The notes below the pieces were generated by a model. That model saw only the letters and a program-made list of their open reading frames with translations, did not search any database and was not told the origin of the DNA. From Bacteroidales bacterium (GTDB taxonomy: Bacteria > Bacteroidota > Bacteroidia > Bacteroidales > JAADGE01), in assembly GCA_021648725.1 (NCBI GenBank), contig JAKISF010000012.1:1-64000 (forward strand): DNA of 64,000 nt, written 5' to 3'. Positions 48,284-64,000 of this stretch are shown one piece after another. How positions within the stretch are numbered: position 1 is the stretch's first letter; each line of letters begins with the position of its first letter. The translations under genes and the position numbers were made by a program.

Positions 48284-50095
48284 ATGGCAATGACAATAAT
48301 CGAAAAAATCATCGCAAATCATTCAAAATATGATACCGTTAAACCCGGTGATATCGTTGATATTGAAATTGATGTAAGAGCTGCCAGAGATTTCGGCGGA
48401 CCCAATGTAGTAAAGCATTTTCAAGAACATAATTTAACACTTGATGATGCAAGTAAAACATTCTTTACATTTGATACTAACCCTACGGGTTCAGACCAAA
48501 AATATGCCGTAAATCAGCATATTTGCAGAACTTTTGCCAGAAATACCGGTATTAAAGTTTTCGATATTAACAACGGTATCGGAACGCATGCTCTTATTGA
48601 AGAAGGCTTGGTTTATCCCGGTTCAACAATAGTAACAACCGATTCGCATGCCAATATTATGGGTGCGGTAGGTGCATTCGGACAAGGAATGGGCGATAAA
48701 GACATTGCCGTTGCATTTAATAAAGGCAGCGTTTGGTTTAAAGTTCCTCAATCAGTAAAAATTAATCTTGTCGGAAAACGTCCCGTAAATATTACCGCAA
48801 AAGATATAGTTCTGAATTTACTTGATAAATTCGGTGCAAATTCTTTACTGCAATATTCGGTTGAAATGTACGGCGAAGAAGCTGAAAAACTCACTCTTGA
48901 CGAAAGAATTACCATAGCATCAATGGGAACAGAAATGGGAACAATTATTATTTTGTTTCCGCCGAGTAAAGAAATACTTGATTACAGTTCGGAACGTGCA
49001 GGCAAAAAGATAGAAGGAGTCTATGCTGATGAAGATGCTCATTATGAGGAAGTTCACGACATTGACATTTCAAAATTCGTTAATATGGTTTCACTTCCGG
49101 GTAAACCGCACGGAACCGTAAATATTATCGAAGCACATAAAACTAAAATTGATTCCGGCTTTATAGGGTCATGCACAAACGGTCGTATGGAAGATATGCG
49201 AGCAGTTGCCGAAGTTCTTAAAGGCAGAAAAGTTGCTCCGGGCGTTGTTCTTAAAATTGTTCCTTCAACCGATGCAATTTGGCAACAATGTTTAGATGAA
49301 GGTATAATTAAAATTTTTAAAGAAGCAGGTGCATTAGTTTCAAATGCCGGATGTGCCGGATGTGCCGCCGGACAAGTAGGTCAAAACGGACCGGGAGAAA
49401 TTACTATCAGTACGGGAAACCGAAATTTTCCCGGCAAGCAAGGGAAAGGAGAGGTTTACTTATCATCCCCCGAAACAGTTGCAGCTTCGGCAATAGCCGG
49501 ATATATTACAACAATTAATGCAATACCCGATGAACCTGCAATTTTTACACCGCAAGAAATTGATGCAAAGATTGAAAATGCAAAAAAAGAACAATCACAA
49601 TCAGATGATAAACAGACTGTTGTAGAAGGCAGAGTTTGGTACATACAAGAAGATGATATTGACACAGACATGATTTTTCATAACCGATACCTTGCAATTA
49701 CCGATATTAATGAAATGGGACAATATGCTTTCGATAACTTAAAAGGTTATGAAGATTTTGCAAAACAAGCAAAACCGGGAGATATTGTTGTTGTTAATAA
49801 AAATTTCGGTGCGGGGAGTTCACGTCAACAAGCTGTTGATTGCTTTAAAGCATTGGGCGTACAAGCAATTGTTGCCGAAAGTTACGGAGCAATTTACGAA
49901 CGAAATGCAATCAATGCAGCATTCCCTATTGTAATATATAAAACTTTGGAAGGATTAGATTTGGAACATTTCGATACGGTCAAAATTAACTTTGAAACCG
50001 GAGAAATGACAAATATTTCAAAAAATAAAAGCATACAAGCAGAACCTTTTTCAGATGTTCAGTTAGAGATTTATCAGAATGGAGGATTATTTTAA
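48284..50095 (+). CDS. Aconitase-superfamily hydro-lyase with LeuC- and LeuD-like parts in one chain
   Basis: A 603-residue [4Fe-4S] dehydratase. Residues about 1-415 are LeuC/homoaconitase-like: DSHANIMGAVGAFGQGMGDKD near 125, the first cluster Cys in FIGSCTNGRM near 297, and the CAGC pair in NAGCAGCAAGQVG near 360. After a charged linker (about 430-450) the C-terminal part is the LeuD-like swivelling domain (DIDTDMIFHNRYL ... GAGSSRQQAVDCFKALGVQAIVAESYG). LeuC and LeuD are usually separate proteins. Substrate could be isopropylmalate, citrate or homocitrate. No leucine genes are adjacent, so aconitase is at least as likely. All cluster cysteines are in place. Confidence 0.85.
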   Translation: MAMTIIEKIIANHSKYDTVKPGDIVDIEIDVRAARDFGGPNVVKHFQEHNLTLDDASKTFFTFDTNPTGSDQKYAVNQHICRTFARNTGIKVFDINNGIGTHALIEEGLVYPGSTIVTTDSHANIMGAVGAFGQGMGDKDIAVAFNKGSVWFKVPQSVKINLVGKRPVNITAKDIVLNLLDKFGANSLLQYSVEMYGEEAEKLTLDERITIASMGTEMGTIIILFPPSKEILDYSSERAGKKIEGVYADEDAHYEEVHDIDISKFVNMVSLPGKPHGTVNIIEAHKTKIDSGFIGSCTNGRMEDMRAVAEVLKGRKVAPGVVLKIVPSTDAIWQQCLDEGIIKIFKEAGALVSNAGCAGCAAGQVGQNGPGEITISTGNRNFPGKQGKGEVYLSSPETVAASAIAGYITTINAIPDEPAIFTPQEIDAKIENAKKEQSQSDDKQTVVEGRVWYIQEDDIDTDMIFHNRYLAITDINEMGQYAFDNLKGYEDFAKQAKPGDIVVVNKNFGAGSSRQQAVDCFKALGVQAIVAESYGAIYERNAINAAFPIVIYKTLEGLDLEHFDTVKINFETGEMTNISKNKSIQAEPFSDVQLEIYQNGGLF

Positions 50096-50101
50096 ACAGG
50101 A

Positions 50102-50262
50102 ACACGGATTGTACGGAATTAAATGGTATGAGTTTCAATTATTAAATTATTTGAAAGCAACAGAAATAGAAGTCGGATTACTGCTCGGTTTTTGAAAAGA
50201 AGCAAAATTTAAACGGAAAATCTTTACAAATGACAGAAAATCAGGACATTTAAAATCCGTGT
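50102..50262. repeat. Inverted repeat around the GxxExxY remnant
   Basis: ACACGGATT (50102-50110) and AATCCGTGT (50254-50262) are a perfect 9-bp inverted pair flanking the degraded gene. The right arm lies within the gene's own 3' end. Short repeats of this type are often seen next to GxxExxY genes, so the match may have a mobile origin. Confidence 0.45.
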
Positions 50263-50264
50263 AA
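50133..50264 (+). pseudogene. Remnant of a GxxExxY-family protein
   Basis: One frame reads FQLLNYLKATEIEVGLLLGF, then a TGA stop (50193-50195), then KEAKFKRKIFTNDRK and ends at a TAA (50262-50264). This is the C-terminal half of the GxxExxY family, whose usual ending has the form QLLNYLKAT.xEVGLLLNFG followed by a basic FKRK. The N-terminal GxxExxY part and a start codon are missing. A single in-frame stop plus the 5' loss make it a pseudogene. It lies between the LeuC-LeuD gene and the OmpH-like gene. Confidence 0.75.
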
Positions 50265-50324
50265 ATCAGGTTTCTGCGTATTCAAAAAAACAGAAAATAA
50301 ATTATTTAATTAAACATCAAATAT

Positions 50325-50332
50325 TATCTTTG
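50325..50332 (+). promoter_or_regulatory. Putative -7 box of the OmpH-like gene
   Basis: TATCTTTG matches TAnnTTTG and is 35 bases before ATG 50368. The upstream TTTA at the -33 distance is only partial. Confidence 0.4.
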
Positions 50333-50367
50333 CACATCAAGAAAAAACTATAATTAAAAATTAAGAA

Positions 50368-50979
50368 ATGAAGAAATATTTTTTAGGATTAGGAGTAACA
50401 GCATTAATGTTCGGAAGTTTATTGTTTACAAATTGTGATAAAGGAGAAAGTAACAATAACCAACCTGCAAATGATAATTTGTTTAAAATAGCTTATGTAA
50501 TGACAGATACCTTGTCGGAAGCATACGAATATTTTAACGACTTACAATCATCTCTTCTTATTGAAAGACAAGAAAAAGAAGCAGAATTAAGCAACAGATA
50601 CCAAGTATTGCAAAATAAGTTCTTGAAAATTCAAAGAGATGTTCAAAATCGTATGATGACCCCGACAACCGGACAAAAGAAGCAAGAGCAATTAGCTTTA
50701 CAGCAACAAAAATTGCAACAAGACCAACAAATGTATGAAATGGAGATAATGGAAAAAAGCCAAAAAATGACTTTGCAAATACTTGACAGTATTCAAAACT
50801 ATCTTTCAATCTACAATAAAGAACATAATTATAACATGATTATTACAAGTGATACTTTGGGGTCTCAAATTTTATATGCCGATAAAGAATTTGACATTAC
50901 AAAAGATGTAATTGACGGTTTAAATAAAAGATACAGAGCATCACTGGGTAAAAGTGAAGTTGAAGAAGGAACGGAATAA
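50368..50979 (+). CDS. OmpH/Skp-family periplasmic chaperone-like lipoprotein
   Basis: A 203-residue protein with a lipoprotein signal (FGSLLFTNC, Cys near residue 23) and an OmpH-type body: an N-terminal strand KIAYVMTDTL, a long Gln/Lys/Glu-rich coiled coil (about 60-145), and a closing YNMIITSDTLGSQILYADKEFDITKDVI segment. Skp chaperones guide outer-membrane proteins across the periplasm. Here the lipid anchor would tether the protein, unlike free Skp. It is followed by a clear terminator, so it is transcribed alone. Confidence 0.85.
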   Translation: MKKYFLGLGVTALMFGSLLFTNCDKGESNNNQPANDNLFKIAYVMTDTLSEAYEYFNDLQSSLLIERQEKEAELSNRYQVLQNKFLKIQRDVQNRMMTPTTGQKKQEQLALQQQKLQQDQQMYEMEIMEKSQKMTLQILDSIQNYLSIYNKEHNYNMIITSDTLGSQILYADKEFDITKDVIDGLNKRYRASLGKSEVEEGTE

Positions 50980-50997
50980 AACTAATTATAAGTAATG

Positions 50998-51027
50998 AAA
51001 AAATCCGGCTTTATGTCGGATTTTTTT
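50998..51027 (+). terminator. Intrinsic terminator after the OmpH-like gene
   Basis: AAATCCG (51001-51007) and CGGATTT (51017-51023), extended by flanking A and T, form a stem with a 9-base loop and end in a run of seven T. It lies 19 bases after the stop. Confidence 0.8.
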
Positions 51028-51056
51028 GTGTATATTACGAACCAAAAACCAATATT

Positions 51057-52316
51057 TTGGCATTTGCAAACACATATTTTAAAAGGTTTCAGGCAAAAGA
51101 TGCTGTAATTAACGAACTTCCGCAAAAAGATTTGTTTTTATCAATTGTAATTCCTGTTTTTGATGAGCCGAATTTATGCAGGTCTTTGCAATCTTTAAAA
51201 GATTGTTTAATGCCTGAAAAAAGCATTGAAGTTATTGTTGTAATAAATTCTTCCGAAAATAGCCCTAAGCATATAATTGACTTAAACAGAAAGATATACA
51301 AAAAAGCAAAAGTATTTGCGGAACAAAACAGCAATCAAAAAATTAAATTTCATATTCTTAATTTTGAGAAACTTCCTAAAAAGTTTGCAGGTGTCGGATT
51401 AGCACGAAAAATAGGAATGGATGAGGCTTTGCACAGATTTAATAAATTGGAAAAATCGGATGGGTTAATTGCCGGTTTTGATGCAGATGCTTTAGTTGAA
51501 GAAAATTATTTTACGGAAATTGAGAATTACTTCAAGCAAAACCCTAAAATAAATGCTGCATCAATAGATTTTCAACATCCCGTTTCAGGAAATGATTTTT
51601 CGGAAGATATTTACAGAAACATTATACAATATGAACTTCATTTACGATATTTTATTGAAGCTTTAAGATTTGCAAACTTCCCTTTTGCCTATCACACAAT
51701 AGGTTCGAGCTTTGCAGTTAGAGCCGATGTTTATGCAAAGCAGGGCGGAATGAACAGACGCAAAGCAGGCGAGGACTTTTATTTTCTGCAAAAAATTATT
51801 CAACTCGGTAATTACGGCGAAATAAATACGACAAAAGTAATTCCCTCTCCCCGAATTTCTGACAGGGTACCTTTCGGAACAGGTGCGGCTGTTAAAAAAA
51901 TGATTGAAAATAACGAAACAACTTATTTGACATATTCTTTTGAGCTTTTTGAAATGATTAAACAATTTTTTATTGAAAAGAATTCTTTTTATCTTAAATA
52001 TTCATTAAAAAAAGTTCCTGAAACTATCTCAGAGTTTTTAAAAATTAATAAATTTGAAGAAGATTTGAAAAAAATCAAAAAAGAAAGTCCGAATATAAAT
52101 ACATTTCAAAAAAAGTTTTTTGAATGGTTTAATGCTTTCAGGGTAATTAAGTTTTTAAATTTCGCACATGAAAAATATTATAAAAAGCAATGCGTAAAAA
52201 ATGAAAGTATTAAATTATTAAAAATATATCATCCTGAAATAAAAGTTGATAACAACAATACAAAATTATTAAATATTTACAGAAAAATCCAAATCCATAA
52301 AAATGAAGAGTTATAA
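51057..52316 (+). CDS. Family 2 glycosyltransferase-like protein
   Basis: A 419-residue protein with a GT-A fold start SIVIPVFDEPNLCRSLQSL (near residue 30) and a DxD-like sugar-nucleotide/metal motif in GFDADALVEENYF near 138. A later segment, RRKAGEDFYFLQKII (near 235), fits the acceptor-side ED motif. No membrane segment is evident, so it acts in the cytoplasm. The acceptor is unknown. The start is a TTG at 51057 inside the tail of the terminator region; an ATG further in (near 51238) would remove the GT-A start. Its 3' end overlaps the next gene by 14 bases. Confidence 0.82.
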   Translation: MAFANTYFKRFQAKDAVINELPQKDLFLSIVIPVFDEPNLCRSLQSLKDCLMPEKSIEVIVVINSSENSPKHIIDLNRKIYKKAKVFAEQNSNQKIKFHILNFEKLPKKFAGVGLARKIGMDEALHRFNKLEKSDGLIAGFDADALVEENYFTEIENYFKQNPKINAASIDFQHPVSGNDFSEDIYRNIIQYELHLRYFIEALRFANFPFAYHTIGSSFAVRADVYAKQGGMNRRKAGEDFYFLQKIIQLGNYGEINTTKVIPSPRISDRVPFGTGAAVKKMIENNETTYLTYSFELFEMIKQFFIEKNSFYLKYSLKKVPETISEFLKINKFEEDLKKIKKESPNINTFQKKFFEWFNAFRVIKFLNFAHEKYYKKQCVKNESIKLLKIYHPEIKVDNNNTKLLNIYRKIQIHKNEEL

Positions 52317-53187
52317 AGTTTTAATCACAAGTTTATTCTTGCTTTTTTCAATATTTATTCAAGCACAGGAGAATTCAACAACAGAAAAATCATTACTTTG
52401 GGAAATTTCCGGGAACGGTCTTGAAACTCCGTCATATATATTCGGAACAATACATCTTATCCCTGTTGAAGATTATTTTTTTACGGATGTTATGAAAGAA
52501 AAACTCCTGAGCTGCAAAACATTAGCATTAGAGATAGATATTAATATGTCTTTGGCGGATAAAATTGATATGGCAAAAAAAATAATGTTACCCGACGGAA
52601 AACGATTATCCGATTTTCTTACCGAAGAACAATATCAAGAATATTCTGCATATATTTTAGATTCATTAAAAATCAAAGAATCAAAATTTAAACAAATGAA
52701 TATGCTGAAACCGATTTTTGCATCTTCAATAATTTTAGTAGAACTTCTCGGAAAAACAAAAACTTATGAGGAAGAACTTAATAAACTTGCAAAAAAGAAA
52801 GAACTAAATGTAATAGGTTTGGAAACAGCAGATTATCAGTTATGTATATTGAACGGAATTAGTTTAGAAAAGCAAATTGAAATGATATTTAAAGACGGTC
52901 TAAGCGGAAATCCGACAGAAGAGTTTCAAGAAATATTAGATGTTTATAAAGAACAAGATTTAGAAAAAATGAATGAACTTTTTAAAGCTGATGAAAGTTT
53001 GGCAGAATTCGGAGATGATTTATTGGTAAACAGAAATAAAAATTGGATTCCTGTTATGGAAAAACAAATGAAAAAAAACAGTATCTTTGTTGCTGTCGGT
53101 GCTGCTCATTTGCCGGGAGAAACCGGAGTTTTGAACTTATTAAGAAATAAAGGCTACACAATTACTGCAACTGACATTAAAAAATAG
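52303..53187 (+). CDS. TraB/GumN-family protein
   Basis: A 294-residue exported protein: signal segment VLITSLFLLFSIFIQAQ, then the TraB/GumN domain. The first family motif is in YIFGTIHLIP (GTxH, near residue 50), with LETADYQ in the middle and the second GxxH in AVGAAHLPGETGVLNLLRNKGY (near 267). These pairs of Gly-x-x-His motifs are thought to mark a metal-dependent peptidase fold (Tiki/TraB). Its target is not known. It starts within the 3' end of the glycosyltransferase gene (14-base overlap), suggesting coupled translation. Confidence 0.88.
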   Translation: MKSYKVLITSLFLLFSIFIQAQENSTTEKSLLWEISGNGLETPSYIFGTIHLIPVEDYFFTDVMKEKLLSCKTLALEIDINMSLADKIDMAKKIMLPDGKRLSDFLTEEQYQEYSAYILDSLKIKESKFKQMNMLKPIFASSIILVELLGKTKTYEEELNKLAKKKELNVIGLETADYQLCILNGISLEKQIEMIFKDGLSGNPTEEFQEILDVYKEQDLEKMNELFKADESLAEFGDDLLVNRNKNWIPVMEKQMKKNSIFVAVGAAHLPGETGVLNLLRNKGYTITATDIKK

Positions 53188-53200
53188 TAAAAAAAACTCT

Positions 53201-53836
53201 ATGATTGAAATAAACTTGAAATTACTAAAACAGAAATTTCCTCAATTTGAAAAAAAAATGCTAAAGGAAATGCTCTCTTCCGGAATTGTAAAAGAAATTC
53301 CCGAAGCAGTAGAAGTTATCAGGCACGGTCAATATTTAAAGATGCTGCCGGTTGTGCTGGACGGTGTTGTTAAAGTTTACAGCCAATATGAAGATAAAGA
53401 ATTTTTGCTTTATTATATCAAATCGCAAGAGAGTTGTATAATGTCAATGTCTGCCGTTTTGCATAACAGTCCGAGCCGTATATTTGCCGTAACCGGTACC
53501 GATACTGTTTTAATGATGTTCCCGGTTGATAAGGTAAAGAAGTGGGTAAAAACCAGTCCGGCATTTAATTCATTGTTTTATAATTTGTATGATGACAGAT
53601 ATTCAGACCTTATTAACACCTTAAACCAAGTTTTGTTTGAGAAACTTGATAAAAGATTATATGAATATCTACAGGAAAAATCAAAAGTTTCCGGCTTAAA
53701 AAAGATTAATATTACGCATAAAGTAATTGCAACAGAACTCGGAACTGCAAGAGAAGTTGTAAGCAGGATATTAAAAAAACTAGAAAATAACAAACAAATT
53801 ATTCAAGGCAAAGGAAATATTGAACTTTTATACTAA
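53201..53836 (+). CDS. Crp/Fnr-family transcription regulator
   Basis: A 211-residue regulator: cyclic-nucleotide-binding-like beta-roll (about 25-130; RHGQYLKMLPVVLDGVVKVYSQYEDKEFLLYYI) and a C-terminal winged helix (about 150-205) with the recognition segment VIATELGTAREVVSRILKKLE. The usual cAMP-contacting Arg/Glu phosphate cassette is not evident and no Fnr-type Cys ligands for an iron-sulfur cluster are present (only one Cys, in SCIMSMSAVL), so the signal is unknown. It lies 13 bases after the TraB gene and 330 bases before the peroxiredoxin cluster, which it could regulate. Confidence 0.9.
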   Translation: MIEINLKLLKQKFPQFEKKMLKEMLSSGIVKEIPEAVEVIRHGQYLKMLPVVLDGVVKVYSQYEDKEFLLYYIKSQESCIMSMSAVLHNSPSRIFAVTGTDTVLMMFPVDKVKKWVKTSPAFNSLFYNLYDDRYSDLINTLNQVLFEKLDKRLYEYLQEKSKVSGLKKINITHKVIATELGTAREVVSRILKKLENNKQIIQGKGNIELLY

Positions 53837-54006
53837 TTTATTTCAGCACTTACCCTGAATTGTAAAACACTGATTTAGAGTGTTGAACCCATCTCTGTCT
53901 TTTTTGTATTTTAGGATTCTGCCACATTTTTATACTATCCCAAAAATATTTTTAATTATTTTTCGTTTTTGTGACATTAGTTACAGAACATTGTTATAAA
54001 ACATAT

Positions 54007-54014
54007 TATATTTG
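54007..54014 (+). promoter_or_regulatory. Putative -7 box upstream of the peroxiredoxin-decarboxylase cluster
   Basis: TATATTTG perfectly matches TAnnTTTG. A TTG at 53991-53993 is too close for a normal -33 element, so the assignment is tentative. Confidence 0.35.
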
Positions 54015-54063
54015 TAAGTAATTAATGACAAATAATAATTAGTAGATTTGTTCATACTTCGTT

Positions 54064-54114
54064 CATTGCTGTTGACTCCCGAGTTTTTTAGAGTTCCTTG
54101 GGAGTCCGGCAATG
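54064..54114 (+). repeat. Long imperfect inverted repeat in the leader of the peroxiredoxin gene
   Basis: CATTGC (54064-54069) and GACTCCC (54074-54080) on the left pair with GGGAGTC (54100-54106) and GCAATG (54109-54114) on the right, with a 19-base loop and small internal bulges. It lies within 105 bases of the ATG at 54167. It could be an RNA control element or a small relic of a mobile element. Confidence 0.5.
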
Positions 54115-54166
54115 ACATTAAATCCTTATTTCATATTCCCGTTTTCTAATTTAAAATCAATTTAAA

Positions 54167-54781
54167 ATGCTAAACAGTATAATCAATAAATATTTAAAAA
54201 ATATTTTGTATATTGTTGCGTTATTAATTTTTACAAATAATAAAGTAACATCACAAGAACAACTGAAAACTGGCTCAAAAGCCCCTGAAATAAAAGCAAT
54301 TGATCATGATAACAACACTTTTGTTCTGAGAGAAAAGTTAAAAGAAGGACCTGTTGTTCTTTTATTTTACAGAGGAGAGTGGTGTAAATATTGTAATTTG
54401 TATATGCACGATCTTGCAGATTCATTGTCTTTTGTCACAGATATGGGAGCTAATGTTGTTGCAATTACACCTGAAAGTAATGAATACATTGACATAACTA
54501 TTGAAAAATCAAAAGCAACATTCAGCATTATTTATGATGAAGAGCACAAAATAATGGATGATTATAAAGTTACATGGCATGTCAGTAAATTTGCTAATTT
54601 TTTCTATAAATTAAGCGGAAAAAATTTAAATAAAGCAAATAATAATTCTGACAGAGCATTGCCGGTGCCTGCAACATACATTATAGATAAAGACGGAACA
54701 ATAAAAGGTGGTTATTTTAATGAAAATTACACAAAACGAATGCCTGTAAGTGAAATAATAAAAGTGTTGAAAACTATATAA
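54167..54781 (+). CDS. Exported peroxiredoxin-like (AhpC/TSA) protein
   Basis: A 204-residue thioredoxin-fold protein: signal segment (about 8-29, ...NNKVTSQ), then GSKAPEIKAIDHDNNTFVLRE, the active-site region FYRGEWCKYCNLYMHDL with CxxC near residues 74-77, and the conserved cis-Pro loop in PVPATYIID (near residue 174). It resembles the peroxiredoxin-like AhpC/TSA group. It is 4 bases upstream of the decarboxylase gene, so they share a transcript. An exported redox protein beside a cytoplasmic decarboxylase is unexpected; they may serve different compartments. Confidence 0.87.
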   Translation: MLNSIINKYLKNILYIVALLIFTNNKVTSQEQLKTGSKAPEIKAIDHDNNTFVLREKLKEGPVVLLFYRGEWCKYCNLYMHDLADSLSFVTDMGANVVAITPESNEYIDITIEKSKATFSIIYDEEHKIMDDYKVTWHVSKFANFFYKLSGKNLNKANNNSDRALPVPATYIIDKDGTIKGGYFNENYTKRMPVSEIIKVLKTI

Positions 54782-54785
54782 CAAA

Positions 54786-56261
54786 ATGTCGGTAAATTAT
54801 AAAGAAACATTAGAAAAATTATTTGATATTATTATTAATTATATAGATGATAACTTTAAAAAAAATAATAAAGCAATAATTGAATACAGAACCCCTTCCG
54901 AATTAAAAAAAGAACTTTCTTTTAAAATTAAGAAAGCCGGTATTTCAGATAAAGAACTTTTAGATGAAGTTAATAACTATCTGAAATACAGTGTCAAAAC
55001 GGGCGACAAACAATTTTTTAATCAACTTTATTCAGGCTTTAATATTCCCGGTTTTATAGGAGAAATAATTACAGCATTAACAAACACTTCAATGTACACT
55101 TTTGAAGTTGCTCCTGTTGCTACATTAATCGAAAAAGAACTTATCAATAAGATGTGCAATATTGTAGGGTTTAAAAACGGCTCCGGAATTTTTGTTACCG
55201 GAGGAAGCAACGCAAACCTTATTGCAATGTTTTCTGCCAGAAATAAAATATTTCAAGATGGAAAGACAAAAGGAATGTATAATGCAAAAATATTAACTGC
55301 ATTTGTTTCGGATCAAGCACATTATTCTTTCGGAACAGCAGCAAATCTTCTCGGAATAGGTTCAAACAATCTTATTAAAATTAAATCTGACGAAAACGGA
55401 AAAATGATTCCGCAAGAGTTGGAAAAAGAGATTATTAAATCATTACAAAAGGGAGATTTACCGTTTTTTATTGCAGCAACAGCCGGCACTACCATGCTCG
55501 GAGCATTTGATGATTTCGGAAAAATAAATGAAATTTCAAAAAAATATAATTGCCGGTTTCATATTGACGGTTCATTCGGAGGTTCAATTCTTTTAAGTAA
55601 AAGCAAAAAACACTTATTTAAAAATGCCCAATTTGCTGATTCATTTGCCTGGGATCAGCATAAATTAATGAACGTACCTTTAGCTTCGTCAGTAATTCTT
55701 TTTAACGAAAATAATGTTCTCAAAAATAATTTAACAAAGCTCAAAACTGACTATATTTTTCATGAAAACGAAGAAGATAATTGTGATTTAGGCGAAAGTT
55801 CAATTCAATGCGGCAGAAGAAACGACAGTTTAAAACTTTGGCTTGCTTGGAAATATTTCGGAGATTCTGGTTATGAAAAACGAATTAATAACTTATTCAA
55901 ATCGGTTGAATATCTGAAAATAAAAATAATTGAGCATAAAAATTTTGAATTATATGCAGAAGTGCAAACATTAACCGTATGTTTCAGGTATAATCCCGGT
56001 AAAGAGTATGATTTAAATGCCCTTAACTTAAAAATCAGAGAAGATCTTCGTAAAAGCGGAAAGTCTATGGTAAATTACGGTTATATTAATAATCAATTGA
56101 TTATAAGGTTTGTTGCTGCAAATGCCGATATTGAAAATAATGATATTGATACTTTCTTTAACAATTTCTTAGAAATTGCTCAAACAGTTACAAAAAACAT
56201 AAACAATAAAAATGCAGACAGATTCAGTAATAATAATGGCATGGCCCCAAACTCCCGCTAA
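54786..56261 (+). CDS. Group II PLP-dependent amino-acid decarboxylase
   Basis: A 491-residue cytoplasmic fold-type I enzyme of the glutamate/aromatic amino-acid/cysteine-sulfinate decarboxylase family. Motifs seen: GIFVTGGSNANLIAM near residue 135, SDQAHYS near 175, AATAGTTMLGAFDDF near 233, and the PLP lysine in WDQHKLMNVP (about residue 293), preceded by FHIDGSFGG near 258 with its PLP-contacting Asp. Substrate is not settled by these motifs. It begins 4 bases after the peroxiredoxin stop. Its 3' end overlaps the start of the next gene by 26 bases, which points to coupled expression and a shared role. Confidence 0.9.
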   Translation: MSVNYKETLEKLFDIIINYIDDNFKKNNKAIIEYRTPSELKKELSFKIKKAGISDKELLDEVNNYLKYSVKTGDKQFFNQLYSGFNIPGFIGEIITALTNTSMYTFEVAPVATLIEKELINKMCNIVGFKNGSGIFVTGGSNANLIAMFSARNKIFQDGKTKGMYNAKILTAFVSDQAHYSFGTAANLLGIGSNNLIKIKSDENGKMIPQELEKEIIKSLQKGDLPFFIAATAGTTMLGAFDDFGKINEISKKYNCRFHIDGSFGGSILLSKSKKHLFKNAQFADSFAWDQHKLMNVPLASSVILFNENNVLKNNLTKLKTDYIFHENEEDNCDLGESSIQCGRRNDSLKLWLAWKYFGDSGYEKRINNLFKSVEYLKIKIIEHKNFELYAEVQTLTVCFRYNPGKEYDLNALNLKIREDLRKSGKSMVNYGYINNQLIIRFVAANADIENNDIDTFFNNFLEIAQTVTKNINNKNADRFSNNNGMAPNSR

Positions 56262-56982
56262 AGCTATCGGTATGTGGTATGATGCCGTTACTGAATTGTT
56301 CGGCTTCTTAAAAAACGGATATTACAAAGCAGGACATGCAGCAGCAGTTTTAGTTAATCATTCAACAAAAGAACTTCATTACTTCGATTTCGGACGTTAC
56401 CATATGCCCAAAGAATATGGCAGAGCAAGAAATAAAGAAACAGACCCTTTACTTAAAATTAAAACAGAACTTCTATTGTCTGATAAAAATGAAATTTTGA
56501 ACATTGATAAAATTTTAACAGAATTAAATAATAATAATGCTTGTCACGGAGAAGGACCTTTATACGCTTCAATATTGGAAAATGTAGATTTTAATTCTGC
56601 TTTTAAGTATGCAAAATCAATTCAAAACAAAGACGCAGTCCCTTACGGACCGTATGAAAAAAAAGGTACAAACTGTTCTCGGTTTATTACGTCAATTGCA
56701 AAAAAATCAAACCCCGCAAGAAAAATTAGATTCAGATTATCAACTTCGTTATTGTTGACACCTCTTACAAAAGCAAATGTTTTTGCATCTTCCGATATTT
56801 ATTATAAAGTTGTAAATAAAAATGTTGCAAAACACAAATTAACATATAAAGACCAGTTAAAAAATTTTATGCTTCCGTATATCATAAAAAGCATAGATGA
56901 AACAGAAAAACAGGATATTCAAAACATTCAACTTCCGGTAAATACTTCCAAAGCATTATATTGCTTAAACAGAAAAAAATGA
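56236..56982 (+). CDS. DUF6695-like protein, N-terminal part; possible permuted papain/LRAT fold
   Basis: A 248-residue protein starting at ATG 56236, 26 bases inside the decarboxylase gene in another frame. The sequence AWPQTPAKAIGMWYDAVTELFG...YKAGHAAAVLVN...HYFDFGRYH resembles DUF6695. The order His34 (AGHAAAVLV) then Cys147 (GTNCSRFI) is the order seen in permuted NlpC/P60 and LRAT enzymes, where His precedes a NC(E/x)F motif; that suggests a thiol hydrolase or acyltransferase. This is inference from motif layout. The stop overlaps the next ATG as ATGA; the family's C-terminal part appears to be encoded by that next gene. Confidence 0.7.
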   Translation: MAWPQTPAKAIGMWYDAVTELFGFLKNGYYKAGHAAAVLVNHSTKELHYFDFGRYHMPKEYGRARNKETDPLLKIKTELLLSDKNEILNIDKILTELNNNNACHGEGPLYASILENVDFNSAFKYAKSIQNKDAVPYGPYEKKGTNCSRFITSIAKKSNPARKIRFRLSTSLLLTPLTKANVFASSDIYYKVVNKNVAKHKLTYKDQLKNFMLPYIIKSIDETEKQDIQNIQLPVNTSKALYCLNRKK

Positions 56983-57260
56983 TTACTCCTCCGGATAATA
57001 TACCTGCAAACAGCAAATTCCTTGAAGGAGTAGGAGAGAGTGCCTGGTTTAATATCAAAGCAACAAGCAAAAAAAATGAATTTATAATTAGTCGCTACAC
57101 AACAGAAGGTACTTTAGAATGTTCAAACACCTTCATTATCCAAACTCCAGGGTTTGACATTTCAAAACAATATGAGTTTACTTATGTATCTCATTGTACA
57201 AAATGTACCTTGTTACAGAATAATAAACGGCATATCTTGTTAAAAATAAGGAAGATATAA
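56979..57260 (+). CDS. C-terminal part of a DUF6695-like protein, encoded separately
   Basis: A 93-residue frame starting at ATG 56979, overlapping the stop of the preceding gene by ATGA. The start ITPPDNIPANSKFLEGVGESAWFNI and the later TTEGTLECSNTFI read like the C-terminal domain that follows the permuted-papain-like domain in longer DUF6695 proteins. It is therefore either a naturally split domain made as a separate chain by termination-reinitiation, or a frameshift within one ancestral gene. Both parts look intact in composition, so I favour a functional split. An upstream in-frame start at 56961 is possible. Confidence 0.65.
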   Translation: MITPPDNIPANSKFLEGVGESAWFNIKATSKKNEFIISRYTTEGTLECSNTFIIQTPGFDISKQYEFTYVSHCTKCTLLQNNKRHILLKIRKI

Positions 57261-57427
57261 AACAGCCTGCTTCTTTAAATCGGTAATAATCACATAATTA
57301 GTTTCTTATGAAAAGAAATTTAATGTTGATGCAACTTTTTTGCCGAAAAACATATCATATTATTAGTGATATTATAATTATTATTACTATTTTTACCTAC
57401 TTTTTTCTTATTAAAATAATTGGATGT

Positions 57428-60400
57428 ATGGGTAATTTAAACAAATTTTTACAACAGCTGTCATTAATTTTCTTATTATTAGGTGTATATAATATTGTAT
57501 TTTCTCAAACAATAGTGTATCAAGATTTTGAAGGAGGTGCCGATAACTGGAATTATTCAGAATCTCCGGTTGCTTATAATGTGTCCGGAGATATTTGGGA
57601 CATAGTATCATCATTAAACTCTGTTAATCCTTCAAGTAATAGTGCGATGTGGGGTATGCAAGATTTAGATAATGCAAGCGGTGGCGGAACTTTTGACCAT
57701 ACTCTTACATTTGCTTCTGTAGATGTAAGTACCGTAATAGGAGCACAAATTTCATTTGACTACTATACATTCGGATTTGAAATAGGTGACTATTTAAAAT
57801 ATGAAATTTTTGAAGACGGAGTAGGACAAGGGCAAATCCGGTTAGATCAAAATACCCAAGAATGGAGAACTATAACATATAATGTACCGGATGTTGTTAA
57901 TAGTGTTTACATTGTACTGATCGGTTATATGGATACAGGTTCCGATTACGGAATGTTTGACAATGTTAAAATCAGTGGTACAACAAGCGGAAGTCCGTTA
58001 GTTGCTGTTTCGCAAACAACTTTTAATTTTGATAATGTTTATACAGGAACTTTTAATTCTGAGCCGGTGCAATATACTGTAAGAGGTGCAAATTTAAGTG
58101 CTGATATTGTAATCACAGCTCCTGCCGGATATGAAGTATCTACATTTTGCACTTCCGGTTATGCAAATTCTCTTACATTGACACAATCCGGAGGAACAGT
58201 TGCGGAAACAACAATTTATACAAGGTTTAATCCAAACAGTTACGGTATTTTTACGGGTAACTTTACACATACTTCTACCGGGGCAACAACTAAAAACATT
58301 GTAGTTGACGAAACAAATGTTGCATCAAATTTACCCGGAACATACTATAGCACAGCCACGGGAACCGGAGCAACATTAAAAACTCAACTTCATAATATTA
58401 TTAACGGGCATACGGTTATAACCTACGGTGATTTATGGACTAACTTTTACACAACAGATGATAAACCAAACAGTCACAAAGTTTGGGATATGTATTCAGA
58501 TCAAGCTTGCGGGACACCTGCTTATGAATACCAATTCGGTATAGATCAAACCCGAACAACTGTTACAGTTGTTGAAGGAGATACTTATGAAAGAGAACAT
58601 ACATTTCCTAAAAGTTGGTGGGGTTACACAGACGGCGTAGGAGATACAATGTACACTGATATTTTTGCAATAATCCCTGCAGATGCGTATTGTAACAGAG
58701 AACGTGTGAATTACCCTTACGGTAAAGTTACAGCACCATCAATTACTTTTACAAACGGGGCAATGGTCGGTCCGAATACTTACGGTACTTATACCGGAAC
58801 TGTTTATGAACCTGTTGATGAATATAAAGGTGATTTAGCACGAAATATGTTTTATATGGCAACACGTTATGACGATATTATAGCCGGATGGGAACTTAAC
58901 AGCCCGCGAGGTGATGCCGCTCTTAACGGAACACAATGGCCGTCTTTTGAACAATGGTTTATAGATATGTTGCTCAGTTGGCACATTCAAGATCCTGTTT
59001 CTCAAAAAGAAAAAAACAGAAATGACGATATCTATCTTGTACAAGGCAACCGAAATCCTTATATTGATAATCCGAACTTTGCAAATTTAGTCTGGGGAAC
59101 ACCGGGAACTTCCACAATTACTGCCGGCACAGCTGCTCCGGCTACAATATCTTCTTTAACCGATACACAAATTGAAGCTGTTTTAAATTTTGAGTTTGTA
59201 TTTAACGATGACGGATTAACCCCGTCTGCCGATACAGAACCCACAATGTTTTCGCAACTCGAAATTGTGCAGGGTATCGGTAATGCCGTAGAATTAGCAG
59301 ATTGGACACAAGCCATAGCAGGGGCGGAACTTTCTGACGGTACAACAATCGTTGCGGCAACAATATCATCAACAAAATTAACCTTTTCTCCTTTGGCATT
59401 TTCAAGTGCAGGTGATTTTGGTTATATAGCAGATAACGGAAGCAAAACATACACACTTAAAATTTGGCTTAATTCCGCACTTGGCGGAACTCTTCCTGCT
59501 ACCATCGACGGAAAAGATTTTGTATTTGATATTTTAGCTTCAGGATTTACTTTTGAAGGAACAAGCAGCACTCTAGCCGACGGTGAATCTGAAACTTCGG
59601 GAGACGGTCTTAATGTCGTTGAGGTTATTGCTACTGCTCTTAATATAATTCAGCAACCTTCCGATGCCAATGTTAATATTGCAATGGTGCCCGATGTCAC
59701 TATTGAAGCAATTGATGCAAACGGAAACAGAGATTTAGACCATGCTGATAATATTACTGTGGTTTCCACGGGAATTACTACTGTTTCTCCTATTATAGGA
59801 TTGCTCTCAAACGGCTTAGCAACATTCTCAAATATAGTACATAGTCAAGCAGGAGTAGGTTTGATATTAACTGCTTCATCGGGAACATTACCGGATATTA
59901 ATTCCGGAACATTTATTATTTCTGCTCCTAAAAGTGCAGATTCTGATGTTATACCGGTTGCAGCCAGTGAATCTGCTACGGTACCGTCTAATGAAAACAC
60001 CCCCGGACCCTTAACTTCCGTGCAGGGAATACAAGTTTGGCAATTTACGATTAGAGACGGAGGAGGCTTGGCTGATGCTGATGAATTCGCAACAATTGTA
60101 AATCAGATTGTTATAACGCAAAATGCAGGTAATTCTATGAACGATTGGGATGATGCAATTTTAGCATGTGATTTGTTCGACGGAACAACACATATCGCTT
60201 CTGCTGTTATAGGAAATACAACACTTACATTTTCCGGTGCTCCGTTGGTTACGGTGCCTGATAACGGAAATCTTACGCTTACATTAAGACTTTCTCTTCA
60301 GTTGAACCCTAATAACTTAGGTAATAACTTGGACGGAGATGATTTTGTGTTTAATATATTAAGCACAAATATAACTGCCGATGCTTCAGGTTCAGGATTT

Positions 60401-63400
60401 AGCTCATTTACGGGGACTCAATCAACAAACAGTATGAACGTTTTTGAGATTGTAACTACCAAGTTATTGTTTGTTCAGCAACCTACAAGTGTAGGTGTCG
60501 GTATTGCAATGACACCGGATGTAACTGTCGAAGCAACAGACGCAAACGGAAACAGAGACTTAGATTTTAATGCAAATATTACATTGACTTCAACAGGAAC
60601 TATGACAGGAGACCCTATTACTGTTACAGCAGTTTCCGGGTTAGCAACATTTTCAGGTATAATACATACAGCAATAGGTACAAATTATACAATGACGGCA
60701 TCAACTGTAAGTCTTACTGATGCAACAAGTACAAATTTTGATATACTCGATATAACGGTTTTAGAACCCGGAGATTTAATGGTATTAGCTGTAAATACAG
60801 ACAATCAAATTATTTCAGGAGAAGAATTTACATTCATTTGTTTTAAAGATTTAAAAGAAGGAACTGCCATTGATTTTACCGATAACGGTTGGGAAAGAGA
60901 TTTTCCGGGTAAGTGGGGAGGCACAGAAGGAGTAATCAGACTTTCAAGAGCAGGAGGTGCCGGTATCTTACCTGCAGGAACCAGTGTAACTGTTGTGATG
61001 AATGATGCTGCCGGTTATAATGAAACCGACTTTGATATATTTGTCGGAGGAGTAGATGAATTGCTTGGAACTCCTAAGTGGACAATTTCTGAATTAAATC
61101 CGACAGACGGCTCAGGTTATAATATGAATGCATCTGATGATTTATGGATTATGCAAAACGGAGATTGGATAGAAAATGATACAAGCACAGATCCTACAAA
61201 TCAAGATGATGATTATACCGGTAATGTTCTTTACGGTTGGACTGCAACAGGTTGGCCGGGAGGTGATGCTGCAAGTTCCACTTCATTTTCAAACCTATAC
61301 CCATTCTCAGATTGCTTTAATACAGATGTAAGTGCCGGTTTATTAGATGAAACCGGAAATAATGCAACAGCAACTGAAAGAAGCAAAGTAAGATATACCG
61401 GAGATACAACAGCAACTTCAAAATACGGCTGGATTGCTCGTGTAAATGATGTTGCAAACTGGACAGGTTTTGACACTGATTCTAAATATGATACATATTC
61501 TGACGGGACTCACCCTAATTATGAATACAGGCAAACAGGAATTACAATAACAATTAATCCCGGCGGTTTTGTTTCCGGGGTTTGGACAGGTGCCGGCGGT
61601 GTTGAATGGTTTGATTGTGCAAATTGGCAAAACTTAACCGTTCCTGATGCAACAACAGATGTTTTATTCGGAACAGCTGCCGTAAGCAATGCGATTATTG
61701 ACGCTTCAACGCCAAAAGCAATAGAATATGGCGGAATTGCAGAATGCAACGATTTAACAATATCTAACCAAAGTTTAACACTTGAAGCTAGTGTGGATAA
61801 TAAAATAGAAGTTAACGGAAATTTATTAATTGACGGCACAGGTGTGTTGGATATGGATGACGGCACCGTGGCTGATGACGGACAAATGTATCTGTCAGGA
61901 AACTGGACAAATCAAGGAAATTTAAGTTCATTCTTGCAAGGGCATAGCACAATACATTTATTAGGTACCGGTTTACAAACAATTTCTACCGACGGAACAT
62001 TTGAAGAAAGTTTCTATAATTTATTGGTAAACAATACTTCAACAACAGGAATTCAGCAAAATTCTGATGTTACTGTTGAAGGAGAACTAACCCACATTTT
62101 GGGCGAACATGATTTAAACGGAAACAATATTACATTACAAGGGAATTATACAAATACTTCAGGCTTATTTATAGGTGATATAGCTTCAGATTTTACGATT
62201 ATCGGTGCAGGTACTTTAGGAGATATTTATTTTGAAACAGATTTCAATCTGAATAATTTTACTATGAACCGTGCGGCAACAAATGCAAATCTTATGACGA
62301 ACCTATCCGTAAATTCAGATATGACAATTTCGGCAGGTTCTGTTACATTAAATTCCCCGAACCAATACGATGTTTTCGGATTGTTAAATAACTCAGTAGG
62401 AACAACAGGGCTTATTATTAAGTCAGATATTAACGGAACAGCTTCTTTAATTCATAATACTGCTGTTGTAAATGCAACTGTTGAACGTTATTTATCCGGT
62501 TACAATTGGCATTATGTTTTTTCTCCGCTTTCAGCTGTTCCTTTAACGCAAGTAAATCAAATTGACGGAACAGGAAACATAAATCCGAACTTTTATTTTT
62601 ATGACGAAACACAAGCTGATTATTGGGATGCAACAACTATATACGGAACAAGCGGGTGGACAACTGCTGTTGATTTTGCCGTTGATAAAGGTTATATTCT
62701 TTATCATACAGCTAATCTGACATATAATTATACGGGCGGAAGTTTATTTGCAGGGCAAAAAGATTTTACTCTTTCATATAATGACAGCGGAACAGGAAAT
62801 ATTAATACAAACGGAGTAACAGCAGATTGGGACGACTTTGAAGGATGGAACTTGCTCGGAAATCCTTATCCTTCTGCAATAGATTGGGATAATGCCGGTA
62901 TAGATAAAACATATATTGAAAATGTAATATATTATTATGATGATTCGGTAGATAAATACCTGTATTACGGAAGCGGAACAACTTTTTCGCAAGGTATTAC
63001 AGTCGGAGGAGGTTCAAGTTTTATTCCTGCGGGGCAAGCTGTTTTTGTGAAATCTTTAAGCAACGGTAACACACAAAACTTAGCAATCCCGAATAATGCT
63101 CGAGCACATAGTTTACAGGCTTTCTGGAAAACACAAAATAAAAATAATAATTTGATAAGAATACAAATTGAGAATGAAGGTTATACCGATGAAACAGTTA
63201 TTCGTACTTTAATTCCCGAGTCAAATGTTTCGGAAGGCTTTGATGCAGATTATGATGCACATAAATTATTTGCAATTAATAAAACAAATCCGCAATTATA
63301 TACCGAAGATTTGCCGGGTTCTCATTCTTTTGCAATAAACAGTATTCCTGAAATTCACGAAAATAAAATTGTTCCTTTAAAAATGCACATAGGTAAAAAC

Positions 63401-64000
63401 GGAATATATGCATTGCATACAACTGAATTTAATTTTGAAAATACTCACGTTTGGTTAGAAGATGTTGTTCTTAACACAAAAACTCGTATTTATGAGCATA
63501 AAGCCTATCATTTTTCTCAATCTGTTGAAAATTATGAAAATCGCTTCTTTTTGCATTTTGATATAAATAATAAACCTGTTGTTAATATTAAAATACCTGA
63601 TCAAGAAACTGAGGTTCATGAAGACTATATATATAATTTGCCCGAAAATGTTTTTATTGACAACGATTTTGAAGATGTTTTAACAATAACAGCAAGCCTG
63701 TCGTCAGGCGAAGAATTGCCTGTTTGGTTAGAATTTAATTCCGAACTAATGAATTTTTCGGGAATACCCGACGAAGTTCAGACTTTAGAAATTAAACTTA
63801 CGGCAAAAGATATATTCGGGGCGGAAGTTTCTGATATTTTTTCTTTAAATGTAAAAAGCCTTGTTTCGGTTTCCGTTTTAAATGAGCAATCTGTTTTTGT
63901 ATATCCTAACCCTACTAATGATGTTATTAATATTTTTATTAAGAACAATAATTTAAAAGGTAATATTAAAATATCAAATGTTAACGGTCAAGAACTGTTT
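57428..64000 (+). CDS. Giant secreted endonuclease I protein with T9SS sorting domain (3' end beyond window)
   Basis: Open from ATG 57428 to the window edge (2191 codons). An in-frame ATG at 57308 is possible but would put a second hydrophobic stretch before the signal peptide (ending NIVFSQ). Domains: a jelly-roll-like binding region (about 30-190) and an Ig-like domain; endonuclease I (about 300-550) with EREHTFPKSWWG near residue 390, the DEYKGDLARNMFYMATRY helix and DPVSQKEKNRNDDIYLVQGNRNP; two tandem repeats of a beta module (about 575-835 and 840-1110); a lamin-tail-like region; long beta-rich regions; a cadherin-like segment; and the start of a sorting domain (FVYPNPTNDVINIF) that runs off the edge. 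The nuclease would act outside the cell. Confidence 0.85.
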   Translation, partial: MGNLNKFLQQLSLIFLLLGVYNIVFSQTIVYQDFEGGADNWNYSESPVAYNVSGDIWDIVSSLNSVNPSSNSAMWGMQDLDNASGGGTFDHTLTFASVDVSTVIGAQISFDYYTFGFEIGDYLKYEIFEDGVGQGQIRLDQNTQEWRTITYNVPDVVNSVYIVLIGYMDTGSDYGMFDNVKISGTTSGSPLVAVSQTTFNFDNVYTGTFNSEPVQYTVRGANLSADIVITAPAGYEVSTFCTSGYANSLTLTQSGGTVAETTIYTRFNPNSYGIFTGNFTHTSTGATTKNIVVDETNVASNLPGTYYSTATGTGATLKTQLHNIINGHTVITYGDLWTNFYTTDDKPNSHKVWDMYSDQACGTPAYEYQFGIDQTRTTVTVVEGDTYEREHTFPKSWWGYTDGVGDTMYTDIFAIIPADAYCNRERVNYPYGKVTAPSITFTNGAMVGPNTYGTYTGTVYEPVDEYKGDLARNMFYMATRYDDIIAGWELNSPRGDAALNGTQWPSFEQWFIDMLLSWHIQDPVSQKEKNRNDDIYLVQGNRNPYIDNPNFANLVWGTPGTSTITAGTAAPATISSLTDTQIEAVLNFEFVFNDDGLTPSADTEPTMFSQLEIVQGIGNAVELADWTQAIAGAELSDGTTIVAATISSTKLTFSPLAFSSAGDFGYIADNGSKTYTLKIWLNSALGGTLPATIDGKDFVFDILASGFTFEGTSSTLADGESETSGDGLNVVEVIATALNIIQQPSDANVNIAMVPDVTIEAIDANGNRDLDHADNITVVSTGITTVSPIIGLLSNGLATFSNIVHSQAGVGLILTASSGTLPDINSGTFIISAPKSADSDVIPVAASESATVPSNENTPGPLTSVQGIQVWQFTIRDGGGLADADEFATIVNQIVITQNAGNSMNDWDDAILACDLFDGTTHIASAVIGNTTLTFSGAPLVTVPDNGNLTLTLRLSLQLNPNNLGNNLDGDDFVFNILSTNITADASGSGFSSFTGTQSTNSMNVFEIVTTKLLFVQQPTSVGVGIAMTPDVTVEATDANGNRDLDFNANITLTSTGTMTGDPITVTAVSGLATFSGIIHTAIGTNYTMTASTVSLTDATSTNFDILDITVLEPGDLMVLAVNTDNQIISGEEFTFICFKDLKEGTAIDFTDNGWERDFPGKWGGTEGVIRLSRAGGAGILPAGTSVTVVMNDAAGYNETDFDIFVGGVDELLGTPKWTISELNPTDGSGYNMNASDDLWIMQNGDWIENDTSTDPTNQDDDYTGNVLYGWTATGWPGGDAASSTSFSNLYPFSDCFNTDVSAGLLDETGNNATATERSKVRYTGDTTATSKYGWIARVNDVANWTGFDTDSKYDTYSDGTHPNYEYRQTGITITINPGGFVSGVWTGAGGVEWFDCANWQNLTVPDATTDVLFGTAAVSNAIIDASTPKAIEYGGIAECNDLTISNQSLTLEASVDNKIEVNGNLLIDGTGVLDMDDGTVADDGQMYLSGNWTNQGNLSSFLQGHSTIHLLGTGLQTISTDGTFEESFYNLLVNNTSTTGIQQNSDVTVEGELTHILGEHDLNGNNITLQGNYTNTSGLFIGDIASDFTIIGAGTLGDIYFETDFNLNNFTMNRAATNANLMTNLSVNSDMTISAGSVTLNSPNQYDVFGLLNNSVGTTGLIIKSDINGTASLIHNTAVVNATVERYLSGYNWHYVFSPLSAVPLTQVNQIDGTGNINPNFYFYDETQADYWDATTIYGTSGWTTAVDFAVDKGYILYHTANLTYNYTGGSLFAGQKDFTLSYNDSGTGNINTNGVTADWDDFEGWNLLGNPYPSAIDWDNAGIDKTYIENVIYYYDDSVDKYLYYGSGTTFSQGITVGGGSSFIPAGQAVFVKSLSNGNTQNLAIPNNARAHSLQAFWKTQNKNNNLIRIQIENEGYTDETVIRTLIPESNVSEGFDADYDAHKLFAINKTNPQLYTEDLPGSHSFAINSIPEIHENKIVPLKMHIGKNGIYALHTTEFNFENTHVWLEDVVLNTKTRIYEHKAYHFSQSVENYENRFFLHFDINNKPVVNIKIPDQETEVHEDYIYNLPENVFIDNDFEDVLTITASLSSGEELPVWLEFNSELMNFSGIPDEVQTLEIKLTAKDIFGAEVSDIFSLNVKSLVSVSVLNEQSVFVYPNPTNDVINIFIKNNNLKGNIKISNVNGQELF
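59150..60760 (+). repeat. Tandem duplicated module inside the endonuclease I protein
   Basis: Two copies of about 800 bases (59150-59935 and 59950-60760) encode parallel proteins: each has a VQGI/Q-type opening, a variable ADG/DGTT segment, an ATALNIIQQP or TTKLLFVQQP joint, then an EAxDANGNRDLD segment and SNGLATFSNIVH or SGLATFSGIIH. The two copies differ clearly in sequence, so the duplication is old. Confidence 0.7.

What the first reader, a model, noticed from the sequence alone, without database searches (positions are those of the whole stretch)
54167..57260. Four-gene cluster: exported thiol-redox protein, amino-acid decarboxylase and a split His-Cys protein
Seen: gaps of 4 bases, then overlaps of 26 bases (decarboxylase into the DUF6695-like gene) and an ATGA overlap into a 93-residue gene. 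Known: group II PLP decarboxylases make amines; permuted papain-fold enzymes (LRAT/PLAAT, NlpC/P60-like) transfer or cut acyl groups on amides. Inference: the pair could make and acylate (or deacylate) an amine, a small-molecule pathway I do not know described for this family. This is my best candidate for a new system in the window.
Basis: partly seen in the sequence, partly recalled or inferred. Interest (0 to 1): 0.62.

Follow-up and report, generated by a model that had tools for sequence, protein, structure and literature searches.

The report
Hypotaurine-type decarboxylase beside TseH-like enzyme
A bacterial gene cluster pairs an enzyme that probably makes hypotaurine from oxidised cysteine with a relative of lipid-acting and toxin enzymes, and the same pairing recurs in many Bacteroidota, hinting at an undescribed amine or lipid pathway.

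Summary
The four genes are real: an exported AhpC/TSA peroxiredoxin-like protein, a PLP decarboxylase, a TseH-like permuted NlpC/P60 cysteine enzyme, and a separate DUF6695 C-terminal domain. Four of 13 other same-genus genomes keep the set. The third gene more likely starts at 56212, so it overlaps the decarboxylase by 50 bases, not 26. Its His and Cys lie in one gene; what is split is a two-domain protein. The predicted fold matches TseH, then YiiX.

The decarboxylase looks like cysteine-sulfinate/aspartate decarboxylase: best PDB match CSAD, and Tyr/Phe instead of GAD's Ser in 56 of 56 relatives. Cysteine dioxygenase occurs in 14 of 15 genomes of its clade that were searched. In 16 genomes of two other linked clades neither dioxygenase nor PanD was found, so there it may make beta-alanine.

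Best inference, untested: a hypotaurine (or beta-alanine) maker coupled to an acyl-transferring enzyme. Product unknown.

The parts
54167..54781 (+). AhpC/TSA (peroxiredoxin-like) protein with an N-terminal hydrophobic stretch, probably exported; CxxC in RGEWCKYCN
   Evidence: PF00578 E 6.8e-24; upstream of the decarboxylase in all five same-genus loci
54786..56261 (+). Group II PLP decarboxylase of the CSAD/GADL1/GAD type, 491 aa; PLP Lys293, specificity residue Tyr82
   Evidence: PF00282 E 3.3e-84; best PDB match CSAD 6zek E 1.1e-93; Tyr/Phe at position 82 in 56 of 56
56212..56982 (+). TseH-like permuted NlpC/P60 cysteine enzyme, 256 aa; likely start 56212; His42, Cys155
   Evidence: PF25218 E 2.2e-48; model pLDDT 86 (modelled from 56236); 6v98 Z 16.4; His and Cys invariant in 60 of 60; start
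56979..57260 (+). Separate DUF6695 C-terminal domain, 93 aa, ATGA overlap with the gene before
   Evidence: PF20405 E 1.2e-25; in one ORF with the TseH-like domain in 20 of 81 loci

Best explanation
The cluster is a metabolic module. The decarboxylase makes a short acidic amine: most likely hypotaurine from cysteine sulfinate in the window's lineage, perhaps beta-alanine from aspartate in some relatives. The TseH-like protein is a permuted NlpC/P60 (LRAT/YiiX-type) cysteine enzyme with the DUF6695 domain as its partner; it most likely forms an acyl-enzyme from a membrane lipid or other acyl donor and passes the acyl group on, with the amine as the likeliest acceptor. Shown here: gene content, predicted fold, conserved His/Cys, recurrent linkage, and presence of a cysteine dioxygenase relative in the same genomes. 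Inferred: the decarboxylase substrate, the acyl transfer, the acceptor, and DUF6695 as a binding partner. The peroxiredoxin-like gene is an accessory of unknown role.
For: Decarboxylase relative directly upstream in 33 of 81 loci; linkage changes at least 4 times on the decarboxylase tree and 8 times on the TseH tree. Best PDB match CSAD; Tyr/Phe instead of GAD's Ser in 56 of 56 (meaning of the residue from PMC7367687 section 10). Cysteine dioxygenase relatives: in the upstream operon of 5 of 81 TseH loci, beside the decarboxylase in 10 of 20 loci without adjacent TseH, in 5 of 5 same-genus genomes with the cluster against 1 of 8 without (p 0.005), in 14 of 15 genomes of the clade. PanD is present elsewhere in 13 of 15 of these, so beta-alanine does not depend on the decarboxylase there. 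Fold: TseH and YiiX; lipid/acyl activities reported for permuted NlpC/P60 enzymes (passages of PMC12994826). TANGO2, the gene most often found in the same upstream slot instead, is reported as an acyl-CoA binding protein (listing abstract).
Against: No substrate or product was shown. In 16 genomes of two other decarboxylase-TseH clades neither CDO nor PanD was found, so hypotaurine cannot be the common product. The CDO relatives of TseH loci are divergent and barely pass Pfam (25-36 bits, cut-off 23). In 27 of 81 loci the slot holds TANGO2 and no decarboxylase, so TseH does not always need the amine. TseH itself gave no activity in one of two phospholipase assays. No lipid-synthesis gene was found in the window cluster.
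Confidence: 0.38

Rival explanations
1. Beta-alanine supply: the decarboxylase is an aspartate 1-decarboxylase feeding pantothenate and CoA, and the TseH-like gene next to it serves something else.
For: In G503, G531 and G557 (decarboxylase next to TseH) PanB is present and PanD was not found; in 13 further genomes of another linked clade PanD was not found. In G022 and G243 a second PanD follows a fused TseH-DUF6695 gene. GADL1, with the same Tyr, uses aspartate (PMC7367687 section 10).
Against: PanD is present in 5 of 5 same-genus genomes with the cluster and in 8 of 10 further genomes of the clade, and CDO relatives in 14 of 15.
Confidence: 0.2
2. Antibacterial effector and immunity pair: the TseH-like protein is a toxin and the DUF6695 protein its immunity protein.
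For: Homology to the T6SS effector TseH. In L146 an Rhs-like TseH protein is followed by a small membrane protein that matches the DUF6695 profile (hhalign probability 96.5%; 18.8 bits, below Pfam's cut-off of 25).
Against: The window protein begins with the catalytic domain and has no delivery domain. Toxin and DUF6695 domain are one ORF in 20 of 81 loci. The eleven upstream ORFs scanned show no secretion-system or Rhs family. The neighbours are metabolic genes.
Confidence: 0.08
3. Redox protection: hypotaurine and the peroxiredoxin-like protein protect the envelope, and the TseH-like enzyme is a phospholipase that removes damaged acyl chains.
For: A peroxiredoxin-like gene is in the upstream run of 15 of 81 TseH loci, AhpD-like and thioredoxin-like genes in some. 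TseH showed phospholipase activity in a fluorescence assay.
Against: The peroxiredoxin-like gene is missing from the upstream run in 66 of 81 loci; hypotaurine as antioxidant is recalled, not tested here.
Confidence: 0.14
4. Amidase or peptidase: the TseH-like enzyme hydrolyses an amide of the amine, or a peptide, rather than transferring acyl groups.
For: The superfamily includes peptidases, and TseH was first proposed as an endopeptidase (passage of PMC12994826).
Against: The permuted members described in those passages act on lipids; a biosynthetic decarboxylase next door fits making a conjugate better than breaking one.
Confidence: 0.15

Closest known systems
TseH (VCA0285), T6SS effector of Vibrio cholerae, PDB 6v98; Pfam TseH-like PF25218
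   Same: Profile hit E 2.2e-48; fold Z 16.4 over 162 residues; His and Cys conserved
   Different: 18% identity in the structural alignment; no delivery domain, no secretion genes among the upstream ORFs scanned, operon with a decarboxylase, DUF6695 partner domain
YiiX / LRAT-type permuted NlpC/P60 lipid enzymes, and DUF4105 (Lnb), Bacteroidota lipoprotein N-acyltransferase
   Same: Permuted papain-like fold (YiiX Z 8.2); acyl chemistry reported for the group (passages)
   Different: Separate clades in the published tree; donor and acceptor unknown here; no LRAT or PLAAT entry among the rows
Animal cysteine sulfinic acid decarboxylase (CSAD), GADL1 and GAD
   Same: Best PDB matches over the whole length; Tyr as in GADL1, Phe as in CSAD at the specificity position; PLP Lys and His conserved in 56 of 56
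   Different: Substrate not measured; bacterial operon with a TseH-like gene
Cysteine dioxygenase plus cysteine sulfinate decarboxylase (hypotaurine/taurine synthesis)
   Same: CDO relative beside the decarboxylase in 10 of 20 loci without adjacent TseH and in 5 of 81 TseH loci
   Different: In the window genome the CDO relative is on another contig and scores only just over the cut-off

Membership tests
TseH-like PF25218 / permuted NlpC/P60 | Profile score over the curated cut-off | tested here: met
   164.7 bits, cut-off 27
TseH-like PF25218 / permuted NlpC/P60 | Catalytic His and Cys conserved, His before Cys | tested here: met
   Invariant in 60 of 60 and 15 of 15
TseH-like PF25218 / permuted NlpC/P60 | Permuted papain-like fold | tested here: met
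   Predicted model only; 6v98 Z 16.4, 2if6 Z 8.2
T6SS effector | Delivery domain or secretion-system genes nearby | tested here: not met
   None in the protein or in eleven upstream ORFs; the long downstream ORF was not scanned, nor the whole genome for T6SS
LRAT/PLAAT acyltransferase | Acyl transfer from phospholipid | not testable with these tools
   Needs an enzyme assay
LRAT/PLAAT acyltransferase | Structural match to an LRAT/PLAAT entry | tested here: inconclusive
   None among the rows listed; absence there is not evidence
Cysteine sulfinate decarboxylase | Sequence closest to CSAD among solved structures | tested here: met
   6zek E 1.1e-93, GAD1 close behind at 6e-91
Cysteine sulfinate decarboxylase | Tyr/Phe instead of GAD's Ser in the specificity pocket | tested here: met
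   Tyr82; Tyr or Phe in 56 of 56. Does not separate Asp from cysteine sulfinate
Cysteine sulfinate decarboxylase | Activity on cysteine sulfinate | not testable with these tools
   Needs an enzyme assay
DUF6695 C-terminal domain PF20405 | Profile score over the cut-off | tested here: met
   90 bits, cut-off 25
Cysteine dioxygenase PF05995 (partner gene outside the window) | Profile score over the cut-off | tested here: met
   Own genome 25.5 bits, cut-off 23: only just over; 10 of 10 beside decarboxylases without adjacent TseH at 68.6-98.3 bits

The most novel reading that the evidence does not exclude
A widespread Bacteroidota pathway makes an undescribed aminosulfinate or aminosulfonate lipid (N-acyl hypotaurine or taurine, with beta-alanine analogues in some lineages): a cysteine dioxygenase and a CSAD-like decarboxylase make the head group, and a DUF6695-bound TseH-like enzyme attaches the acyl chain. 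The antibacterial TseH toxins, and perhaps their immunity proteins, would then be offshoots of this housekeeping enzyme and its DUF6695 partner domain.
Probability: 0.2. Interest if true: 0.78.

Novelty: new variant of a known kind. Interest (0 to 1): 0.57.

Why it matters
In the open library searched, DUF6695 is named by one paper, as the TseH effector clade. A recurrent operon with CSAD-like decarboxylases, and cysteine dioxygenase relatives in the same genomes, gives the Bacteroidota branch a metabolic setting and a short list of substrates to test. If acyl transfer is right it would add a lipid class and a likely origin for a toxin family. Even without that, it points to candidate hypotaurine synthesis genes in Bacteroidota.

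Tried and rejected
Glutamate decarboxylase: judged unlikely from the specificity residue. Diaminobutyrate, PanP, tyrosine and histidine decarboxylases: NCBIfam models hit far below their cut-offs. Sphingosine-phosphate lyase: only weak PDB hits, E about 1e-8. Anti-phage defence: no PADLOC hit for the four proteins. RNA elements: no Rfam match at the gathering score in 50000-58500. Cysteate route: in L030 and L032 a PLP enzyme precedes the fused TseH gene; the cysteate synthase model is the top NCBIfam hit for L030 and third for L032, at under half its cut-off, so it is only a lead.

Fold search: no LRAT or PLAAT entry is among the rows for the window model. For the fused model the DUF6695 part gave rows of Z 4.0 or less, so its fold is unassigned.

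Results that weaken my reading: my first comparison of CDO in TANGO2-linked genomes used 0 of 6 and left out G621, which has a CDO; corrected to 14 of 15 against 1 of 7, p 6e-4. Several CDO hits barely pass the cut-off (G753 22.9 bits, 23.5 with neighbours; G751 24.2; G000 and G757 25.8). G015, a same-genus genome without the cluster, was not in the CDO search. The species are related, so the p-values are not independent tests. In one search, 3 of the 32 class/phylum loci repeat loci of the first set (L152=L041, L154=L043, L156=L053) and 1 had no recognised TseH; in that sample decarboxylase comes first upstream in 3 of 32 (all three repeats) and TANGO2 in 8. Neighbours are BLAST labels; only representatives were checked by Pfam. 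Rows left out: 6 near-copies of 62 in the decarboxylase tree, 17 named loci in the TseH tree, decarboxylase ORFs under 400 aa and the three repeats. Both trees are quick ones with SH-aLRT support only.

Papers: PMC12994826 passages; PMC7367687 passages and section 10; PMC5947694 passages; TANGO2 papers by listing abstract. Searches for hypotaurine or acyl-taurine in bacteria listed no paper whose title or abstract start describes this pairing; I opened none of them, and the library is open-access only.
Full report
WHAT IS THERE. Four co-directional genes run from 54167 to 57260. Pfam names them AhpC/TSA (E 6.8e-24), Pyridoxal_deC (3.3e-84), TseH-like (2.2e-48) and DUF6695 C-terminal domain (1.2e-25). 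The third gene more likely starts at 56212: in the other 80 loci the frame continues upstream of the AWP motif with a short M...IIxL-like stretch, and the window has MQTDSVIIMAWP from 56212. The overlap with the decarboxylase is then 50 bases. His42 and Cys155 are both in gene 3; gene 4 is the C-terminal domain that other species carry in the same ORF.

IT IS CONSERVED. Of 21 genomes of the family searched, 6 have DUF6695: the window genome, 4 of the 13 other same-genus genomes, and one of another genus. The four same-genus relatives hold the same four genes in the same order at 47-72% identity; in G006 the TseH-like frame is broken. The other-genus genome (G001, L025) has a fused TseH-DUF6695 with peroxiredoxin-like genes and no decarboxylase in the stretch held.

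THE ENZYME FOLD. A model of the third gene from 60 sequences has mean pLDDT 86 (modelled from 56236). Foldseek has one PDB match at E 0.001 or better, the V. cholerae effector TseH, 6v98, E 1.1e-5. The second look gives TseH Z 16.4 (162 aligned, rmsd 2.5), YiiX Z 8.2 (131 aligned, rmsd 3.6) and CLN5 Z 4.5. His and Cys are invariant in 60 of 60. PMC12994826 (passages) places TseH, which it equates with DUF6695, among permuted NlpC/P60 families with LRAT, YiiX, Tox-Act1 and DUF4105. It reports phospholipase activity of TseH at pH 8.9 in a fluorescence assay and none in its mass-spectrometry assay.

THE PAIRING RECURS. A genome-contig scan found 416 relatives and returned the best 80. With the window that is 81 loci. 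The first same-strand upstream gene within 300 bases is a decarboxylase relative in 33, a TANGO2-family gene in 27, and something else or nothing in 21. In a class sample, 28 of 395 genomes have TseH and 24 have a decarboxylase relative at E 1e-68 or better. Seven have both, and in four (the window genome, G503, G531, G557) the genes are adjacent. On the decarboxylase tree the TseH link needs at least 4 changes, 3 forced by starred branches. On the TseH tree it needs 8, 4 forced. These counts cannot tell gain from loss, but the linkage was formed or lost repeatedly, and decarboxylase and TANGO2 genes alternate in the same slot.

WHAT THE DECARBOXYLASE DOES. The best PDB match is cysteine sulfinic acid decarboxylase, closely followed by GAD1 (E 1.1e-93 and 6e-91). 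PMC7367687 section 10 attributes the preference of GADL1 and CSAD for aspartate or cysteine sulfinate over glutamate to Tyr or Phe in place of GAD's Ser. All 56 ingroup decarboxylases have Tyr or Phe there, Tyr in the window (the position was matched by me from the alignments). This does not separate aspartate from cysteine sulfinate.

Cysteine dioxygenase (CDO) is the better clue. A CDO relative is in the upstream operon in 5 of 81 TseH loci, and beside the decarboxylase in 10 of 20 loci where TseH is not adjacent; those 10 pass Pfam at 68.6-98.3 bits. The versions in TseH loci are divergent, 25-36 bits against a cut-off of 23 (one truncated ORF gave no hit). In the window's own genome a CDO relative (25.5 bits) sits at G000:C46:102-743 beside YceI-like and OB-fold genes. 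In G006 and G011 the same gene types stand just before the peroxiredoxin-like gene; in G017 and G018 they stand together on another contig. CDO is found in 5 of 5 same-genus genomes with the cluster and 1 of 8 without (p 0.005; G015 not searched). With ten further genomes of the same decarboxylase clade, CDO is in 14 of 15 and PanD in 13 of 15. For comparison CDO is in 1 of 7 TANGO2-linked genomes searched (p 6e-4).

THE EXCEPTION. In genomes of the other two decarboxylase-TseH clades (3 and 13 searched) neither CDO nor PanD was found in any of the 16. PanB is present in the 3 tested. The 13 are held at 1.0-1.8 Mb and their completeness is not told. There the decarboxylase may supply beta-alanine. 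In G022 and G243 a second, lower-scoring PanD follows a fused TseH-DUF6695 gene and a PLP enzyme precedes it. The common thread is a decarboxylase for a short acidic amino acid next to the TseH-like enzyme, not one fixed amine.

MECHANISM. The most economical reading is that the amine made by the decarboxylase is used by the permuted NlpC/P60 enzyme, most likely as acyl acceptor; the product would be an N-acyl hypotaurine, taurine or beta-alanine. Acyl chemistry is reported for the superfamily, and TANGO2, the alternative neighbour, is reported as an acyl-CoA binding protein (listing abstract). Single TseH loci have a lipid desaturase (L163) or a fatty acid hydroxylase (L028) next door. None of this is shown for the window proteins. 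DUF6695 may be a binding or regulatory domain: next to an Rhs-like TseH protein in L146, a small membrane protein matches the DUF6695 profile (hhalign probability 96.5%) though below Pfam's cut-off.

VERDICT. The cluster is best described as a CSAD-like decarboxylase coupled to a TseH/DUF6695 enzyme. The chemistry of the second step remains open.

Noticed in passing
57308-64000: Very long open frame (2231 codons, running off the window) directly downstream of the cluster; its domains were not analysed.
   Followed up: no
54063-54115: Strong hairpin (RNA MFE -27.6 kcal/mol) between the CRP-like gene and the peroxiredoxin-like gene; no Rfam match. Could be a terminator or a leader.
   Followed up: partly
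L146:3301-4398: Rhs-like protein with a TseH domain followed by a small membrane protein related to DUF6695: a possible toxin-immunity pair whose immunity protein resembles the housekeeping partner domain.
   Followed up: partly
TseH loci such as L029, L082, L155: The upstream slot of TseH often holds a TANGO2-family gene (27 of 81 first upstream), usually preceded by a DinB-like gene (Pfam DinB_2 19.6 bits, below the cut-off of 24.8).
   Followed up: partly
L030 and L032 (G022, G243): Fused TseH-DUF6695 gene between a cysteine-synthase-like PLP enzyme and a second PanD: a possible cysteate or beta-alanine variant of the module.
   Followed up: partly
L060, L063, L065, L068, L071 and others: In one Flavobacteriales clade the order decarboxylase, TseH, DUF6695, small glutaredoxin-like gene, amidophosphoribosyltransferase-like gene (PurF, named by eye) recurs.
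   Followed up: no
G006 (L021:9162-10023, L086): The TseH-like gene is broken into two overlapping frames in this genome.
   Followed up: no
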